NCBI GenBank assembly: GCA_937941745.1 | Contig: CALDGV010000656.1 | Span: 1-20,845 of the forward strand | Direction of reading: 5' to 3' | From: an uncultured Prosthecobacter sp. | GTDB taxonomy: Bacteria; Verrucomicrobiota; Verrucomicrobiia; Verrucomicrobiales; Verrucomicrobiaceae | DNA length: 20,845 nt | In this document: one piece after another, positions 12,872-17,885 of the stretch | How the letters are laid out: every line of letters starts with the position of its first letter | How positions within the stretch are numbered: the first letter of the stretch is position 1 | Made by a program: the position numbers and the translations under genes | Notes under the pieces: model-generated | The model's database searches: none | The model's input: only the letters and a program-made list of their open reading frames with translations | What the model was told of the DNA's origin: nothing

Positions 12872-13609
12872 TCAGACCAGCTCTGCAGGCTGTGCCAGAC
12901 CGCGCATCAACTCCTTGGCCGCCTCCACGCTGAGGCCGGGCCGGAGTTCCAGCAGCCGGGCCAGCCAGGCGGCGACCCTGGGTGCGGCAAAGCTGCTGCC
13001 CGTGACGACCTTCCATCCGCCCTGCCAAGGGACCCGGACGTTCAGCCCCTGCGCCAGAAACTCGACCATGCCGCGCGGACGGTGCTGCCAGACATCGGGC
13101 GGGAGGTCGGCAAGGTTCACCGTCAGCACCGTGGGAAACCAGCCCGGCCACTCGCGCATGCTTGCGTCTTTATTGCTGCAGGCCGCGACGACATGCACAC
13201 GACGGAGATAGGCTTCATCCGTCCATTCCTTGTAAGGCATGACGTGCCTGGCCTCTCCAGGACTGCCAAAGCTGCAGTTCAAAATGTGATAGCCGCGCTG
13301 CACTGCCAGCCTGGCAGCCTCCCAGATCACCGAGGTGCGCCCTCGCAAGTCCGCATCCAGCACCCGGAAGCTGCCGATCTCGGCTTCTGGCACCAGACTG
13401 CGCAGAATCCAGGCGATCGCCGTTCCGTGCCCCATGACATCACCGGAAGTCTGAACGGCCTTGAGAAAGGGGCCGTCGCGCTCGAAAGCCATGTCATCCG
13501 CCAGTTGAAGTCCGCCAAGTGCCGGATGGCTTGAATCAATTCCGGAATCGAGTACGGCGATGCGCACCCCTTTGCCGGTGCAGTGCTGGAGGTCGGCAAG
13601 CGTGATCAT
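12872..13609 (-). CDS. Leaderless subtilisin-like (S8) serine protease
   Basis: The product has 245 residues, short for S8 proteases, and has no signal peptide or propeptide, so it is probably cytosolic. The triad is intact: Asp21 in VRIAVLDSGIDSSHP, His61 in GDVMGHGTAIA, and Ser206 in VVTGSSFAAPRVAA. The oxyanion-hole Asn is Asn146 in VVAACSNKD. Cys112 (LNCSFGS) and Cys144 sit next to substrate-binding and oxyanion positions; redox control is conceivable but is inference. A strong Shine-Dalgarno GGAGGA lies 8 bases before the ATG. Only 4 bases separate the ATG from the stop of the GAF gene, so the two are coexpressed and probably functionally paired. Without a prodomain the enzyme must fold unaided and be held in check otherwise, perhaps by the GAF partner. 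The target is unknown. Confidence 0.9.
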   Translation of the reverse strand: MITLADLQHCTGKGVRIAVLDSGIDSSHPALGGLQLADDMAFERDGPFLKAVQTSGDVMGHGTAIAWILRSLVPEAEIGSFRVLDADLRGRTSVIWEAARLAVQRGYHILNCSFGSPGEARHVMPYKEWTDEAYLRRVHVVAACSNKDASMREWPGWFPTVLTVNLADLPPDVWQHRPRGMVEFLAQGLNVRVPWQGGWKVVTGSSFAAPRVAAWLARLLELRPGLSVEAAKELMRGLAQPAELV

Positions 13610-13613
13610 GATG

Positions 13614-14261
13614 CTATTCCTCCGTGCCCAGCACCCAGGCGTTCAACCGGCTTTCCACCAGCCTTCCCACTGCGGCCGCCGTGGTTTCCATGGTGGCAAG
13701 ATCAGCGAGGCCGAACGCGGCTGGAAGACTCAGACCTGCAGGAAGTTCCGCCGCTGATTCCGGCAGGTGGTCCAGCCCAGGAAAGTCCTTCAGGCGAATC
13801 AGCCGGACGGCCGTGATGACACCACGGGCAGCCCCACCGAAGACGAGGGGCACGGCAAGCATGGCCCAGGTGAGAACGCCCAGGTTGCGGTCCAGTTCCC
13901 GATGCTGCTTCTGATGAAAACAGACCTCAGCCTCACAAGCAGGCAGGCCGCTGGTGAACACAAATCCGGTGATCCCCTGCGTCACGGGCAGCCTGAAGCT
14001 CCCAACAAAGCGCGCCGCATCCGGGCCGTTGTTCCAAACAGGCAGCAAGGCCCGCGAATCATCCACAGCGAGCCAGATCGAGCCTTCATCCGCACCCACA
14101 TGAGTCAAAAAAAGATTTGTCAGGCGCGCAGGCAACCCATCAACCAGCGCAGAAGGCTTCTCTGCCAGACAATGGCGGGCAAGCTGCTCCCGCCTCTCCG
14201 CAAGAAGGCTGGCGGCAGCGACGGTTTCGGGATCGCCTATGATGGAAAAGGGAGCAGGCAT
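13614..14261 (-). CDS. GAF-domain sensor protein paired with the protease
   Basis: The product has 215 residues from ATG 14261, chosen because GGAGG lies 5 bases upstream. The open frame continues to 14429 and another ATG sits at 14273, but that region is basic and low-quality and overlaps the divergent gene's leader. Residues about 20-165 fit a single GAF domain: ADEGSIWLAVDD, then FRLPVTQGITGFVFTSGLP (about 90-107), WAMLAVPLVFGGAARGVITA and VRLIRL. C109-x4-C114-x-H116-x3-H120 sits where GAF domains line their ligand pocket and could bind a metal. The remaining 50 residues are hydrophobic and alanine-rich (PAAFGLADLATMETTAAAVG), with a final ESRLNAWVLGTEE. No output domain is fused, so the signal probably passes to the protease encoded 4 bases downstream. 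The protein is cytosolic. Confidence 0.8.
   Translation of the reverse strand: MPAPFSIIGDPETVAAASLLAERREQLARHCLAEKPSALVDGLPARLTNLFLTHVGADEGSIWLAVDDSRALLPVWNNGPDAARFVGSFRLPVTQGITGFVFTSGLPACEAEVCFHQKQHRELDRNLGVLTWAMLAVPLVFGGAARGVITAVRLIRLKDFPGLDHLPESAAELPAGLSLPAAFGLADLATMETTAAAVGRLVESRLNAWVLGTEE
13618..13623 (-). promoter_or_regulatory. Shine-Dalgarno site of the S8 protease gene
   Basis: GGAGGA on the minus strand lies 8 bases before ATG 13609 and inside the last codons of the GAF gene. It is one of only two strong ribosome-binding sites in the window and fixes the protease start. Confidence 0.8.
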
Positions 14262-14266
14262 GGCAG

Positions 14267-14271
14267 CCTCC
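14267..14271 (-). promoter_or_regulatory. Shine-Dalgarno site deciding the GAF gene start
   Basis: GGAGG on the minus strand lies 5 bases before ATG 14261 and inside the codons that follow the alternative ATG at 14273. This favours 14261 as the true start. Confidence 0.75.
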
Positions 14272-14292
14272 ATATCACAGCGGCATCTGCAA

Positions 14293-14304
14293 GCCAAGCT
14301 TGGC
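14293..14304. promoter_or_regulatory. Perfect 12-base palindrome in the divergent promoter region
   Basis: GCCAAGCTTGGC is a perfect dyad in the 73 bases between the divergent starts of the GAF gene (14261) and the cupredoxin gene (14335). It is flanked by CAAGC direct repeats. Its position suits an operator acting on both transcripts. No clear -10 or -35 boxes were found, and a 12-base palindrome can occur by chance. Confidence 0.3.
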
Positions 14305-14334
14305 AAGCTGGGCATCCGCCGCTTGAATCCAGGC

Positions 14335-14979
14335 ATGCTCCGCTTCACTTCGGCCTGCCTGGGTCTGCTTCTCTGCTGCCAGTCTGTTCTGGCGGATGGT
14401 GCTGTGACAGGCACCGTCGTGCTGGACACCCAGCGTCCGCCCGATGTGCCCGCTGGCTACCGCCCGCTGACGGTGAAGCCCATCCAGCCTGAGGACCCCA
14501 CTCCAGCCATCGTCTGGGTCGAAAAGAAAGGCCTGAGCTATCCAAAACCAGCCACCCAGAAGCCTGTCACCATCTCCCAGCGCGGCTACCAGTTCCGGCC
14601 TGCGGTGCTGGTGGTTCAGACAGGGACTCCTGTGGTCTTTCCCAATCAGGATGACGAGTTCCATCACGTCTTTTCCTACTCGAAACCGCACCCCTTTGAC
14701 CTCGGCCGCTTCCGGCAGGGGGAAACACCAGGGGCACGCATTCTGGAGAAGCCCGGGCTCATCAAAATCTACTGCGAGATTCACAAGCACATGCGCTGCA
14801 GGCTGCTTGTTCTCGACAGCCCCTGGCACGCCGTCACAGATGCCCAGGGAAGGTTCAAGATCACCGGCATCCCGGCTGGGGACTATGAGATCAAGGCGCT
14901 GCTGCCTTCCGAAAAGCAGATCACCTCTGCAATCACCATCCGCGATGGTCAAACCACCACGATTCAGCTTTCCCGCTAG
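14335..14979 (+). CDS. Periplasmic cupredoxin (plastocyanin/MauL-like) with carboxypeptidase-regulatory-like tail
   Basis: The product has 214 residues from ATG 14335. An open frame from 14239 was not used because only the later ATG gives a clean signal peptide (MLRFTSACLGLLLCCQSVLA). The cupredoxin fold is indicated by FRPAVLVVQTGTPVVFPNQD, then EFHHVFSYS (His110, His111) and IKIYCEIHKHMRCRL, giving likely type-1 copper ligands His110, Cys147, His150 and Met153. This is the plastocyanin pattern, one-electron copper chemistry in the periplasm. Residues about 157-205 (VTDAQGRFKITGIPAGDYEI) match the carboxypeptidase-regulatory-like beta-sandwich. Similar proteins are often annotated 'methylamine utilization protein', but no mau enzyme genes are present here. 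It is the first gene of a three-gene operon, 3 bases before the cyclase, so it probably feeds copper, redox or ligand information to it. Confidence 0.82.
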   Translation: MLRFTSACLGLLLCCQSVLADGAVTGTVVLDTQRPPDVPAGYRPLTVKPIQPEDPTPAIVWVEKKGLSYPKPATQKPVTISQRGYQFRPAVLVVQTGTPVVFPNQDDEFHHVFSYSKPHPFDLGRFRQGETPGARILEKPGLIKIYCEIHKHMRCRLLVLDSPWHAVTDAQGRFKITGIPAGDYEIKALLPSEKQITSAITIRDGQTTTIQLSR

Positions 14980-14982
14980 GCC

Positions 14983-16686
14983 ATGACCTTCCGCGCGCGC
15001 TTGCAGCAGGCCATCATCGGACTCGTGGCAGCCGCCACGGGGGCAAGCCTGTTCATCGCCCAGCAGCAGAACGACGCCCAGCATCGTGAAATGCTCGACC
15101 GGCTCTTCGATCAGCAGTTCGCCGCCTTCCGGCGTGAGCAGCAGCGGAACATCGACCTTGCCGAAAAGAATGTGAAGCGTCTTTCCGAATCCGTGCGGCT
15201 CTTTGCAGCCTTGGAAGCGGGATTTGAAGGCTCCTACCAGGTCGCCACGGATGAACTGCGCCTGGATGATTTTGACTTCTTCCGTCTCCTGGGCGCTGAC
15301 GGCGAGATCATTCAGCCTCCGGAAGGCAGCCGCACTGAAGCAGGACTTGCCGACTCCTCCATTCAGGAGCCTTTGAAACAGCAGCTGACACATGCCAAGC
15401 TCCAGAAAATCACGACTACAGGCTATTTGATCCTGAACAGCGAAGAACTTTCCGCACCTCGTGTTTTCCGCATTGTCTCCGCTCCTATTCAAAACTTCGA
15501 CTCGGTCGTGGGTGCCCTGGTGCTGGGACAGGAAATGCAGGACTTTGGGAAGGATGAAGGTGGCAAATACGAGTTGGGCGGCAGCATGCCTGCCATGTGG
15601 CTGAACGGGAGTCTGGCTGGAAGTGCGCTTCCAGGTGAACTCAAGCCGGGCCTGGAGAAGGACCTGCACGCAGCCATCGGGGCGAATTCACCGGATCATG
15701 TCGAAAGACACCTGCGCATTCAGGGAACAGGCTACCGCTACATGGCGCACTGCCTGAATCCAGGCTCGCCCTTCCCGTCGGCCTATTACGTGTCCATCGT
15801 ATCACTGGCGAACTTCGAAGCCTCACAGAGGATCTTGATCTTCAAGATCGTCGGACTTGCAGTGCTGGCCATCGGCCTGGCCTCTCTCATCGGCTTTCTG
15901 TTTGCGCGGCAGATCACGCAGCCAATCCAAAGCCTGGTGGAGGCCACGCAGCAGATCACAGGCGGCCATTTTCAGCCTGCCATCAGCCCTGGTCCCACGC
16001 AGGAGATGCGGCATCTGGCGGACGCCTTTCAGGACATGGCCGCCGGGCTGGCGCTGAAAGACCGTTATCATTCCGTGCTCAGCATGGTGGCTGATCCACG
16101 TGTGGCGGAGCAGCTCATGGCAGGGAAGATTCCGCTGGGGGGCGAACTGCGCCAAGTGAGCGTGATCTTCTGCGACATTCGCGGCTACACGGCGCTGAGT
16201 GCCGGACGAGATCCTCGGGAGGTCATCCAACTGCTCAACAAGCACATGTCCGCCCTGACCCGGGTGGTTTACCGCCATCATGGCGTGATCAACCAGTTCG
16301 CCGGAGACGCCATCATGATCCTCTTTGGCGCGCCCACGGACAATCCAGACCATGCGCTGAATGCGGTGCAGTGTGCCCGCGAAATGCTGAAGGAGCGCGA
16401 GAAGCTGAACCAGGAGACCCATGAACCTTTGGGCATCGGCTTTGGCATCGCCACAGGCCATGTGGTCGCAGGCTGTCTTGGCAGTGAAAACCGTGCCGAC
16501 TACACGGTCGTGGGAGATCGCGTGAATCTGGCCGCCCGGCTGTGCAGCGTGGCGGGTGCAGGTGAAATCATCCTCGACACCGCCACACGGGCAGAGCTTC
16601 CAGCGGGCTTCGCCACTTCGCCGACCGATCCGCTGAAACTGAAAGGGTTCAACGATCCCATCATCGCGCACCGACTGTTGTCATGA
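14983..16686 (+). CDS. Membrane-bound class III adenylate/guanylate cyclase with periplasmic sensor and HAMP domain
   Basis: The product has 567 residues. The order is: TM1 about 10-26; periplasmic sensor about 28-282, probably Cache-like (SEELSAPRVFRIVSAPIQN); TM2 about 284-306; HAMP about 307-358 (FARQITQPIQSLVEATQQIT); linker; and class III catalytic domain about 390-565. The metal-binding aspartates are present: D398 in VIFCDIRGYT and D442 in FAGDAIMILFG. So are N515 and R519 in VNLAARLC, which stabilise the transition state. The purine-reading pair is Q438 (usually Lys) and T508 (YTVVGD); Thr is typical of the class IIIb, bicarbonate-responsive type. cAMP is the likeliest product, but the Lys-to-Gln change makes substrate uncertain. 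The ATG is 3 bases after the cupredoxin stop, and the TGA overlaps the next ATG. Confidence 0.9.
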   Translation: MTFRARLQQAIIGLVAAATGASLFIAQQQNDAQHREMLDRLFDQQFAAFRREQQRNIDLAEKNVKRLSESVRLFAALEAGFEGSYQVATDELRLDDFDFFRLLGADGEIIQPPEGSRTEAGLADSSIQEPLKQQLTHAKLQKITTTGYLILNSEELSAPRVFRIVSAPIQNFDSVVGALVLGQEMQDFGKDEGGKYELGGSMPAMWLNGSLAGSALPGELKPGLEKDLHAAIGANSPDHVERHLRIQGTGYRYMAHCLNPGSPFPSAYYVSIVSLANFEASQRILIFKIVGLAVLAIGLASLIGFLFARQITQPIQSLVEATQQITGGHFQPAISPGPTQEMRHLADAFQDMAAGLALKDRYHSVLSMVADPRVAEQLMAGKIPLGGELRQVSVIFCDIRGYTALSAGRDPREVIQLLNKHMSALTRVVYRHHGVINQFAGDAIMILFGAPTDNPDHALNAVQCAREMLKEREKLNQETHEPLGIGFGIATGHVVAGCLGSENRADYTVVGDRVNLAARLCSVAGAGEIILDTATRAELPAGFATSPTDPLKLKGFNDPIIAHRLLS

Positions 16687-17885
16687 CACGCCTCGCCCTT
16701 GCCTTCGCCCTGCTGGCTGCCGATCTGGCAGCCCAAACGCCTCTGGAGTGGCTGGACCAGCATCTGACGCTCAGTTCAGCGGATGCGGAATGGCGGGCGG
16801 ATGTCTCTGGCCTGCTGGATCTGGAGGCCTATCTGCCGGAACAGCAGGCGCTCGGTCTTTTGGAGACAGACGACGAGGTCTTTTTCAATCCACGGCTGAC
16901 GCTGATGCTGGATCTTCAGATGAGCTCACACTGGCGGGCCCATGCGCAGATGAGGGCAGACCGAGGGTTTGATCCCGGCTTCGCGCCTGACGGGCAGACA
17001 AGGCTCGATGAGTACTTCGTGGAGTGGAAGCCGCTGGCAAGCGATGCGCTGAACTTCCGCGCAGGCAAGTTTGCCACGGCATTCGGAGCCTGGACCTCCA
17101 GGCGGCTGTCCTGGGACAACCCCTTTGTCACGGCACCCGCCGCTTACAGTGACATGCTTCCCATCACGGACCGGATGGCGGCTCCCGCGGCGGGCTTTGC
17201 GAACCGCCGCAACGTGCCTGAAAACCGCCAGACATGGGTCCCCATCCTCTGGGGGCCTTCCTATGCCAGTGGCGCATCGGTTTTTGGCCGCACCCAGCAC
17301 TTCGACTATGCCCTGGAGGTGAAAAATGCCTCCATCTCGTCGCGCCCCGAAGCCTGGGACGTGGTGCAAAATGGCTGGGATGCCACCACCTTCACCGGCA
17401 GGCTGGGCTGGCGGCCTGCGCCGGAATGGACCCTGGGCACCTCGTTCAGCCATGGGCCCTACCTCCTTGAAGAGGCCGAGCCCACACTGACACGAGGTCA
17501 GGACTACCTAGACTACGATCAAACGACCTTCGGCCTGGACGCTGGCTATGCCCACGGCCCCTGGCAGCTGTGGGGAGAGCTGATGACGAGCACGTTTGAA
17601 GTGCCCAACGTCGGTGAGGTGCATGTCGTCAGCGGCTTTCTTGAAGCCAGACGGCGCCTAGGCGCACGCACCTGGGCCGCCGCACGATGGAATCAAAGCT
17701 GGTTTGGCAACCTTCCGGGCACCAGCCGTGAATGGGACAGGGATGGCTGGCGCATTGATCTCGCCATCGGCCACCGACTGAGCAGCAACCTGCAGGCGAA
17801 GCTGCAGTACAGCCTGGCGGAGCGGACGGGGCATGACCAGGAGGGTGACCACCTCCTGGCAGCACAGGTGACGCTGCGATTTTAA
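16683..17885 (+). CDS. Outer-membrane beta-barrel (porin-like) protein
   Basis: The product has 400 residues, with a Sec signal (MTRLALAFALLAADLAAQ). Alternating amphipathic strands rich in Trp, Tyr and Phe fill the rest, for example FNPRLTLMLDLQMSSHWRAH, LDEYFVEWKPLASD, LNFRAGKFATAFGAWTSRRL, FTGRLGWRPAPEWTLGTSFS and WAAARWNQSWF. It ends with Phe in LLAAQVTLRF, the C-terminal signal recognised by the BAM complex. The GKFATAFGAW segment recalls the porin-family 'G(K/Q)-F-x-x-P-x-G' strand. Its ATG overlaps the cyclase stop (ATGA), so translation is coupled. Placement in a sensor operon suggests a channel or receptor serving the same signal. No plug domain or TonB box is seen, so it is not a TonB-dependent receptor. 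Confidence 0.78.
   Translation: MTRLALAFALLAADLAAQTPLEWLDQHLTLSSADAEWRADVSGLLDLEAYLPEQQALGLLETDDEVFFNPRLTLMLDLQMSSHWRAHAQMRADRGFDPGFAPDGQTRLDEYFVEWKPLASDALNFRAGKFATAFGAWTSRRLSWDNPFVTAPAAYSDMLPITDRMAAPAAGFANRRNVPENRQTWVPILWGPSYASGASVFGRTQHFDYALEVKNASISSRPEAWDVVQNGWDATTFTGRLGWRPAPEWTLGTSFSHGPYLLEEAEPTLTRGQDYLDYDQTTFGLDAGYAHGPWQLWGELMTSTFEVPNVGEVHVVSGFLEARRRLGARTWAAARWNQSWFGNLPGTSREWDRDGWRIDLAIGHRLSSNLQAKLQYSLAERTGHDQEGDHLLAAQVTLRF

What the first reader, a model, noticed from the sequence alone, without database searches (positions are those of the whole stretch)
14335..17885. Compact envelope signalling operon: cupredoxin, transmembrane nucleotide cyclase and outer-membrane barrel
Three genes with gaps of +3 and -3 bases encode a periplasmic type-1-copper-like protein, an inner-membrane cyclase with a large periplasmic sensor and HAMP, and an outer-membrane barrel. 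Together they span all cell compartments. The arrangement suggests that a small molecule, copper or redox state enters through the barrel, is bound by the cupredoxin, and is read as a cyclic nucleotide signal. I recall related cupredoxin genes beside GGDEF/EAL proteins in proteobacteria, but cannot verify this here; a cyclase output would be a variant. The system logic is inference; the gene families are seen.
Basis: partly seen in the sequence, partly recalled or inferred. Interest (0 to 1): 0.75.

Follow-up and report, generated by a model that had tools for sequence, protein, structure and literature searches.

The report
Copper-protein-coupled envelope signalling cassette
Three neighbouring genes encode a copper-binding-type protein of the periplasm, a membrane receptor that makes a cyclic nucleotide, and an outer-membrane barrel; in relatives the same copper protein and a related receptor sensor are wired to four other signalling outputs, which suggests a reusable sensing module.

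Summary
14335-17885 is a tight three-gene unit: a cupredoxin (CUP), a class III nucleotide cyclase with a large periplasmic sensor and HAMP, and an outer-membrane barrel. The gaps are 3 bases and a 4-base ATGA overlap. Its nearest named kin are Verrucomicrobiaceae.

The unit is conserved. In 24 of 24 CUP loci from named genomes the next gene is a transmembrane transducer, and the barrel follows in 23 (the other is cut by a contig end).

The CUP-sensor pair occurs with five outputs: class III cyclase, histidine kinase plus regulator, hybrid kinase, Ser/Thr kinase, and GGDEF-EAL in Proteobacteria. Type-1 copper ligands H/C/H/M are kept in 83 of 83 aligned CUPs. The aligned sensors have no conserved Cys, His or Met.

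My reading: CUP is a periplasmic co-receptor that reports copper or redox state to a Cache receptor, much as YfiR does for YfiN. Contact, copper binding, ligand and the barrel's role are inferred.

Against exclusivity: six related cyclases lack a CUP beside them, and two related kinases sit beside DUF3570-ApbE redox clusters. The window cyclase has Gln, not Lys, at the base-specifying position, so cAMP versus cGMP is open.

New variant of a known kind.

The parts
14335..14979 (+). Cupredoxin (CUP), 214 aa, Sec-type signal peptide by eye (cleavage near ...VLA-DG). Type-1 copper ligands His110, Cys147, His150, Met153 (C-x2-H-x2-M, amicyanin spacing) together with a CarboxypepD_reg-like beta-sandwich.
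   Evidence: signal peptide read by eye; amicyanin ligand spacing recalled
14983..16686 (+). Transmembrane class III nucleotide cyclase, 567 aa: TM1 (about 7-25), periplasmic Cache-like sensor (26-288), TM2, HAMP 306-356, catalytic domain about 385-561. Metal Asp398/Asp442 and Asn515/Arg519 kept; base-specifying position is Gln438 with Thr508.
15058..15846 (+). Periplasmic sensor region of the cyclase, remote relative of dCache_3 sensors
16683..17885 (+). Outer-membrane beta-barrel, 400 aa, C-terminal ...QVTLRF, distant Porin_O_P/OMP_b-brl kin; overlaps the cyclase stop by 4 bases

Best explanation
The three genes encode an envelope-spanning signalling cassette in which the cupredoxin is a soluble periplasmic co-receptor. 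Its type-1 copper site is loaded or changes redox state with the copper or electron supply of the periplasm, and the loaded or reduced form docks on, or leaves, the Cache-like sensor of the membrane transducer. That shift passes through TM2 and HAMP and sets the activity of the cytoplasmic output, in the window a class III cyclase making cAMP or cGMP. The outer-membrane barrel lets the relevant solute in or holds the cupredoxin at the outer membrane, as YfiB does with YfiR. SHOWN by sequence: the genes, their conserved adjacency, the conserved copper ligands, the shared sensor and the exchange of outputs. INFERRED: copper occupancy, docking, direction of the signal and the barrel's role.
For: (1) Adjacency: in 24 of 24 loci from the genome-contig scan a transducer is the next gene after CUP (22 cyclase, 2 kinase). 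Of the 49 loci fetched from the scan of 387 Verrucomicrobiota genomes, 35 have one (16 cyclase, 9 kinase, 8 hybrid kinase, 2 Ser/Thr kinase). (2) Same sensor, different outputs: with TMs and HAMP cut away, the window-type cyclase sensor matches the kinase sensor at E 2.4e-31, and the second cyclase group matches GGDEF-EAL at E 7.4e-37; column-shuffled controls had probability 2.1% or less in 36 of 36 comparisons. The two sensor clans join at probability 97.9, E 5.9e-13 over 238 columns. (3) Copper ligands in 83 of 83 aligned CUPs (70 of 70 in signalling or CUP-barrel loci, 13 of 13 others). (4) A loop with S114, S116, D/E122 and F/Y126 is kept in 67, 67, 69 and 67 of the 70 and in only 6, 1, 1 and 1 of the 13 others (F121 is in 70 of 70 and 9 of 13, so it does not discriminate); it is a candidate docking surface. 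(5) In the 21 and 17 sensors that I aligned no invariant or nearly invariant column is Cys, His or Met, so CUP is the only conserved metal site. (6) Two close kin of the window sensor without a CUP next to them sit beside DUF3570-ApbE clusters, and a DUF3570 protein was shown to be an ApbE flavinylation substrate (PMC8238504, passages read), which points to extracytosolic redox as the common theme. (7) Barrel: 16 of 17 near-full-length places of its family in 387 genomes lie within 4 kb of a CUP, in the same cluster (against 27). (8) cNMP-binding domains (PF00027) occur in 8 of 8 related genomes searched.
Against: No contact, copper binding or activity was measured. The sensor also occurs without CUP: of 21 sensor places in 387 genomes, 13 are beside a CUP, 2 beside DUF3570-ApbE, and 6 are orphan cyclases. 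Three loci have CUP and barrel but no transducer, one has two CUPs in tandem and no transducer, one CUP on the signalling side of the tree (L105, very long branch) lies beside a cytochrome P460 instead, and one barrel has no CUP (G025, L130). Gene order alone cannot tell a co-receptor from a co-regulated target. The cyclase model is only moderate (pLDDT 75.9, pTM 0.49) and its sensor part was not matched to a solved fold.
Confidence: 0.5

Rival explanations
1. Copper-responsive regulon: the transducer senses something itself, and CUP and barrel are merely its co-transcribed targets (copper sink, electron carrier, porin), as I recall for the cin operon of Pseudomonas putida, where a cupredoxin gene neighbours a copper two-component system.
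For: In the kinase group a response-regulator gene sits directly upstream of CUP in 11 of 13 loci (sequences of two), an arrangement that fits autoregulation. Three loci keep CUP and barrel without a transducer.
Against: The pair is kept with outputs that are not transcription factors (cyclase, GGDEF-EAL, Ser/Thr kinase). The aligned sensors lack conserved Cys/His/Met. The window cyclase scores 17.0 bits against the CopS/CztS family cut-off of 292.55.
Confidence: 0.25
2. Electron-transfer reading: CUP shuttles electrons for a periplasmic enzyme and the cyclase adjusts the cell to that metabolism; there is no direct coupling.
For: Other members of the same CUP family lie in respiratory operons: 7 loci have COX1 next (L098-L100, L112, L114-L116), and Phyllobacterium and S. 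meliloti have it by SCO. One CUP that falls on the signalling side of the tree, on a very long branch, is by a cytochrome P460 (L105).
Against: Signalling CUPs lie on one side of a starred branch against 13 respiratory or other rows (support 99, quick tree) and carry a different loop. I saw no oxidoreductase kept beside them in the gene maps, but did not search for one systematically.
Confidence: 0.15
3. The barrel is the sensing or uptake part for an organic solute (phosphate-selective-porin-like), the Cache sensor binds that solute directly, and CUP only protects or matures the sensor.
For: Cache domains usually bind small molecules (recalled); the barrel family shows weak Porin_O_P hits in 4 of 22 members.
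Against: The barrel-like gene next to the second cyclase group has no detectable homology with the window type (probability 4.9) while CUP stays; the partner kept across these loci is CUP.
Confidence: 0.1

Closest known systems
YfiBNR (AwsXRO/TpbB) of Pseudomonas aeruginosa (PMC3375315: abstract and passages; PMC2837407: abstract)
   Same: Soluble periplasmic regulator, inner-membrane transducer with periplasmic sensor plus HAMP plus output, and an outer-membrane partner. The first paper also reports that in relatives the YfiN output is replaced by GGDEF-EAL, HPT or histidine kinases.
   Different: The periplasmic protein here is a type-1-copper cupredoxin, not YfiR; the outer-membrane partner is a barrel, not an OmpA/Pal lipoprotein; the sensor is dCache-like, and the outputs include class III cyclase and Ser/Thr kinase.
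cinRS-cinAQ of Pseudomonas putida (recalled; the paper was not held)
   Same: Cupredoxin gene beside a copper-responsive two-component system.
   Different: There the cupredoxin is a target; no exchange of outputs and no barrel is recalled.
H-NOX proteins with partner kinases or diguanylate cyclases (recalled)
   Same: Stand-alone metal-cofactor sensor protein encoded beside interchangeable signalling partners.
   Different: H-NOX is cytoplasmic and haem-based; here the protein is periplasmic and copper-type.
Amicyanin (MauC) and 'methylamine utilization protein' annotations
   Different: Extra CarboxypepD_reg sandwich and a signalling neighbour; no methylamine dehydrogenase is listed in the 7 plasmid regions that came with a gene table.
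DUF3570-ApbE-DUF4266 extracytosolic flavin clusters (PMC8238504, passages)
   Same: Two kinases with a sensor close to the window's lie beside such clusters.
   Different: No cupredoxin directly in them (one lies about 3.5 kb past a CUP locus); none of the eight window proteins scanned around the cassette is ApbE or DUF3570.

Membership tests
Type-1 cupredoxin, amicyanin-like | Ligands His, Cys, His, Met with C-x2-H-x2-M | tested here: met
   His110, Cys147, His150, Met153; 83 of 83 aligned rows
Type-1 cupredoxin, amicyanin-like | Cupredoxin fold | tested here: met
Type-1 cupredoxin, amicyanin-like | Binds copper, blue or purple spectrum | not testable with these tools
   needs purified protein
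Class III nucleotide cyclase | Two metal Asp, transition-state Asn and Arg (roles recalled) | tested here: met
   Asp398 and Asp442 in 39 of 39 aligned cyclases; Asn515 and Arg519 in 38 of 39 (L024 is cut by its contig end)
Class III adenylate cyclase (cAMP-specific) | Base-specifying Lys and Asp/Thr pair (roles recalled) | tested here: inconclusive
   Gln438 with Thr508 in the window; Gln in 18 and Lys in 21 of 39. Base specificity not decided
dCache_3 sensor (PF14827) | Pfam match | tested here: not met
   0 of 21 members of A5 hit it; 10 of 17 members of A6 do
dCache_3 sensor (PF14827) | Homology to dCache_3 sensors by profile | tested here: met
   A5 against A6 probability 97.9, E 5.9e-13, 238 columns. 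Works like and is remote kin; not filed as a member
Outer-membrane porin (Porin_O_P) | Pfam match of the window protein | tested here: not met
   no family; 4 of 22 family members match weakly
Outer-membrane beta-barrel | C-terminal aromatic signature and barrel-clan kin | tested here: met
   ...QVTLRF; OMP_b-brl in 7 of 22. Signal peptide read by eye; fold not modelled
YfiBNR system | YfiR-family periplasmic protein | tested here: not met
   CUP hits CarboxypepD_reg, CarbopepD_reg_2, fn3_3 and Cupredoxin_1 in Pfam and nothing in NCBIfam
YfiBNR system | Periplasmic repressor binds transducer sensor; outer-membrane partner sequesters it | not testable with these tools
   needs pull-down and fractionation
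CusS/CopS copper sensor kinases | Family score and conserved periplasmic metal ligands | tested here: not met
   TIGR01386 17.0 of 292.55 bits; no conserved Cys/His/Met in A5 or A6

The most novel reading that the evidence does not exclude
A type-1 copper protein serves as the exchangeable input head of a whole family of bacterial receptors: one cupredoxin-Cache pair has been plugged, across Verrucomicrobiota and Proteobacteria, into cAMP/cGMP, c-di-GMP, His-Asp phosphorelay and Ser/Thr kinase pathways, giving cells a copper- or redox-gated sense of the envelope. By hand count 7 of the 387 genomes carry two such units with different outputs.
Probability: 0.45. Interest if true: 0.8.

Novelty: new variant of a known kind. 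Interest (0 to 1): 0.62.

Why it matters
Cupredoxins are known as electron carriers and copper handlers, not, to my knowledge, as receptor subunits. If the coupling is real, it explains many genes now annotated 'methylamine utilization protein' or 'plastocyanin', gives Cache receptors without a known ligand a candidate input (copper or periplasmic redox state), and offers a natural experiment in how one periplasmic signal is wired to five different outputs. It is directly testable with two proteins.

Tried and rejected
Window genome: none is held, so the window's own genome could not be searched; relatives were reached through loci.

Cyclase profile in the 387 genomes: 156 match at E 1e-20 or better, in the listed rows mostly through the catalytic domain alone, so class III cyclases as such are common there; that list is cut and was not used for counts.

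Literature: searches for cupredoxin, plastocyanin, amicyanin or 'methylamine utilization protein' together with GGDEF, EAL, adenylate cyclase or related words turned up no paper that I could see to be about such a unit. Searches found 0 papers. One search listed 12 and one search listed 1, none opened. One search listed 4: passages of PMC7019866 were read, the other three were seen as listings only. One search listed 5: passages of PMC6769254 and PMC7019866 were read, the rest listings. One search (DUF3034) listed 2, not opened. One search listed 2, passages of PMC8238504 read. This covers openly licensed PMC papers only.

Considered and set aside: a fused CUP-cyclase model by reading through the CUP stop (the two genes are in frame). 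The tether would put CUP on the wrong side of TM1, so the result would mislead; it was not run. Coevolution of CUP and sensor was set aside because there are too few sequences and genes of one operon co-diverge anyway.

Promoter and terminator scan uninformative. Rfam: no match at gathering threshold in the window.

Limits of my counts: the gap between CUP stop and transducer start (-32 to +52 bases in 68 loci, the window included, L060 left out) uses a start codon chosen by my script about 35 bases or less before the CUP stop, so the lower bound is set by construction. L060 is the same record as L026. Left out of the tree: L060, L010 (near-copy of L009), L004 and L121 (both S. meliloti, with L003 standing for that branch), and L107 and L116 for low scores, leaving 86 rows. 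L105, L106 and L118 were also left out of the 83-row residue count; the 70 'signalling' rows include 3 CUP-barrel loci without a transducer, and the 13 'others' include L081, which the tree puts on the signalling side. In one search the sensor cut was wrong for some rows; one search replaces it. A5 and A6 hold sensors that I chose (21 and 17), not every sensor seen. The genome search first look scored at most 3-7 candidates per genome in the phylum searches, so its misses are not proof of absence. The tree is a quick one with long branches (L105, L106, L088, L104, L003, L002, L103, L081). The counts of 29 of 387 genomes, and of 7 genomes with two different outputs, were made by hand. Of the 51 plasmid records with a match (also 51) I opened 9: 5 have GGDEF-EAL next, 1 a cache fragment, 3 neither.
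Full report
WHAT IS THERE. Window 14335-17885 holds three genes on the + strand: a cupredoxin (CUP, 14335-14979), a class III nucleotide cyclase (14983-16686) and an outer-membrane barrel (16683-17885). CUP and cyclase are 3 bases apart and in the same frame. The nearest CUP from a named genome is 69% identical and belongs to a Verrucomicrobiaceae MAG (L005); the window's own genome is not held.

CYCLASE. PF00211 96.5 bits and HAMP 39.7 bits; best PDB chain 2w01 (E 1.2e-34), titled guanylyl cyclase Cya2. Among 39 aligned CUP-linked cyclases Asp398 and Asp442 are in all; Asn515 and Arg519 are in 38, the other (L024) being cut by its contig end. The base-specifying position is Gln438 in 18 rows, all in the window's clade, and Lys in 21, so the Gln looks derived. 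Thr508 is Thr in 33, Ser in 5 and missing in L024. The roles of these positions are recalled, and whether the product is cAMP or cGMP is open. Related genomes have cNMP-binding domains (8 of 8).

BARREL. No Pfam match itself; the 22 aligned family members show weak outer-membrane-barrel hits (OMP_b-brl 7, Porin_O_P 4, BBP2 3). It ends in Phe.

CONSERVATION. A scan of genome contigs with the CUP alignment gave 24 loci. In 24 of 24 the next gene is a transmembrane transducer: cyclase in 22, histidine kinase in 2. The barrel follows in 23 of 24, cut short in L008 and L016; L024 ends before it. A search of 387 Verrucomicrobiota genomes with the same profile hit 49, many only through the CarboxypepD_reg part. 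I fetched 49 loci at up to 17.3 kb from those hits and 9 more from genomes reached. Of the 49, 35 have a transducer next (16 cyclase, 9 kinase, 8 hybrid kinase, 2 Ser/Thr kinase; L060 repeats L026), 3 have CUP and barrel only, 1 is a CUP tandem, and 10 belong to respiratory or other settings. By hand count 29 of the 387 genomes carry a CUP-transducer pair and 7 carry two with different outputs.

OUTPUT EXCHANGE. Pfam on the middle proteins shows HisKA/HATPase_c (L027, L028), hybrid kinases with a receiver (L061, L074, L079), Guanylate_cyc (L083, L088) and Ser/Thr protein kinase (L087, L093), and dCache_3-HAMP-GGDEF-EAL in Proteobacteria (L001, L002; also GGDEF and EAL in L117, L119, L120 by HMM). 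In the kinase group a response regulator is directly upstream of CUP in 11 of 13 loci. The annotated proteobacterial CUPs are called 'methylamine utilization protein' or 'carboxypeptidase regulatory-like' and lie directly upstream of the EAL protein; L118 has only a short cache-domain fragment. With TM helices and HAMP removed, window-type cyclase sensors match the kinase sensors (E 2.4e-31), and the second cyclase group matches GGDEF-EAL sensors (E 7.4e-37), hybrid kinases (E 5.2e-14) and, weakly, Ser/Thr kinases (E 4e-6). Column-shuffled controls stayed at probability 2.1% or less in 36 of 36 comparisons; several real cross-clan pairs were also insignificant. Pooled, the two clans join at probability 97.9. 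On the CUP tree the second cyclase group and the GGDEF-EAL group share a starred branch (95), and window-type cyclases, kinases, L061 and the CUP-barrel loci share another (97). The cyclase label needs 4 changes, 3 of them forced by starred branches. The CUP and the sensor therefore travel together while the output changes.

RECIPROCAL TESTS. Barrel profile in the 387 genomes: 17 near-full-length places, 16 within 4 kb of a CUP in the same cluster, the exception in G025; three further weak fragments were not counted. Sensor profile: 21 places, 13 beside a CUP, 2 beside DUF3570-ApbE clusters (DUF4266 was confirmed in one), 6 in orphan cyclases with no CUP in the 13 kb fetched. The orphans are evidence against exclusivity and show that the sensor occurs without CUP.

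BARREL VARIETY. Barrels of the window type and of the kinase group are one family (E 1e-126). The hybrid-kinase group has a distant relative upstream (E 2.2e-11; 6 of 8 loci). The second cyclase group has an unrelated Phe-ending gene upstream in 12 of 14 loci, and the annotated Caballeronia loci have DUF3034. Barrel status of the last two is inferred from the C-terminus only. By the criterion no barrel showed in L077, L078, L086, L087, L088, L002 and L117; L063 has one in a longer frame, and L072 has it after an intervening gene.

WHERE THE SIGNAL ENTERS. In the 21 and 17 sensors aligned no invariant or nearly invariant column is Cys, His or Met, so direct metal sensing by them is unlikely, while CUP keeps a full copper site. 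Signalling CUPs share a loop after the first ligand (S114, S116, D/E122, F/Y126) that the other CUPs mostly lack. I propose it as the docking surface (inference). Two kin of the window sensor without a CUP next to them lie beside DUF3570-ApbE clusters, and a DUF3570 protein was shown to be flavinylated by ApbE (PMC8238504, passages). That points to extracytosolic redox rather than an organic ligand, though copper level itself remains possible.

COMPARISON. The arrangement works like YfiBNR: periplasmic regulator, inner-membrane transducer with sensor and HAMP, outer-membrane partner. YfiN relatives also swap outputs (PMC3375315, passages). It is not a member: CUP hits no YfiR family, and sensor and outer-membrane partner differ. 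Hence 'new variant of a known kind'. My literature searches found no report of a cupredoxin in this role (several listed papers were not opened), within openly licensed PMC papers only.

VERDICT. The weakest links are the lack of any test of CUP-sensor contact and the unknown role of the barrel.

Noticed in passing
window 12872-13609 (-) and 13614-14429 (-): A small subtilase and a GAF-domain protein run divergently from the cassette. GAF is next door in 9 of the 24 loci and the subtilase in 7 of them (some loci are cut there). The subtilase resembles QhpE below its cut-off (80.4 of 165 bits).
   Followed up: partly
L128:8587-10779 and L129:9659-12190: Histidine kinases with a sensor close to the window's (E 1.7e-56 and 1.7e-55) but no CUP next to them, followed by DUF3570 and ApbE (and DUF4266 in L129); the one in L128 lies about 3.5 kb past a regulator-CUP-kinase-barrel locus.
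   Followed up: partly
L122-L127: Orphan cyclases with the same sensor clan and no CUP or barrel hit in the 13 kb fetched; three of these genomes (G002, G202, G246) also carry a CUP-transducer-barrel locus.
   Followed up: partly
L098-L100, L112, L114-L116, L003, L121: Other members of the same cupredoxin family sit beside COX1 or SCO genes, without a signalling partner.
   Followed up: partly
L105: A CUP that the tree puts on the signalling side, on a very long branch, has a cytochrome P460 gene next to it instead of a transducer.
   Followed up: no
L067, L071, L073, L081: CUP and barrel without a transducer (three loci), and two CUPs in tandem (L081).
   Followed up: no
L001, L002, L118, L119: A group 1 truncated haemoglobin gene and DUF3034 accompany the proteobacterial CUP; in three of these loci (L001, L002, L119) a GGDEF-EAL gene follows, in L118 only a cache-domain fragment. 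A haem protein beside a copper protein fits a redox or NO theme.
   Followed up: no
window cyclase residue 438: The Lys-to-Gln difference at the base-specifying position is confined to 18 of 39 CUP-linked cyclases, all in the window's clade.
   Followed up: partly
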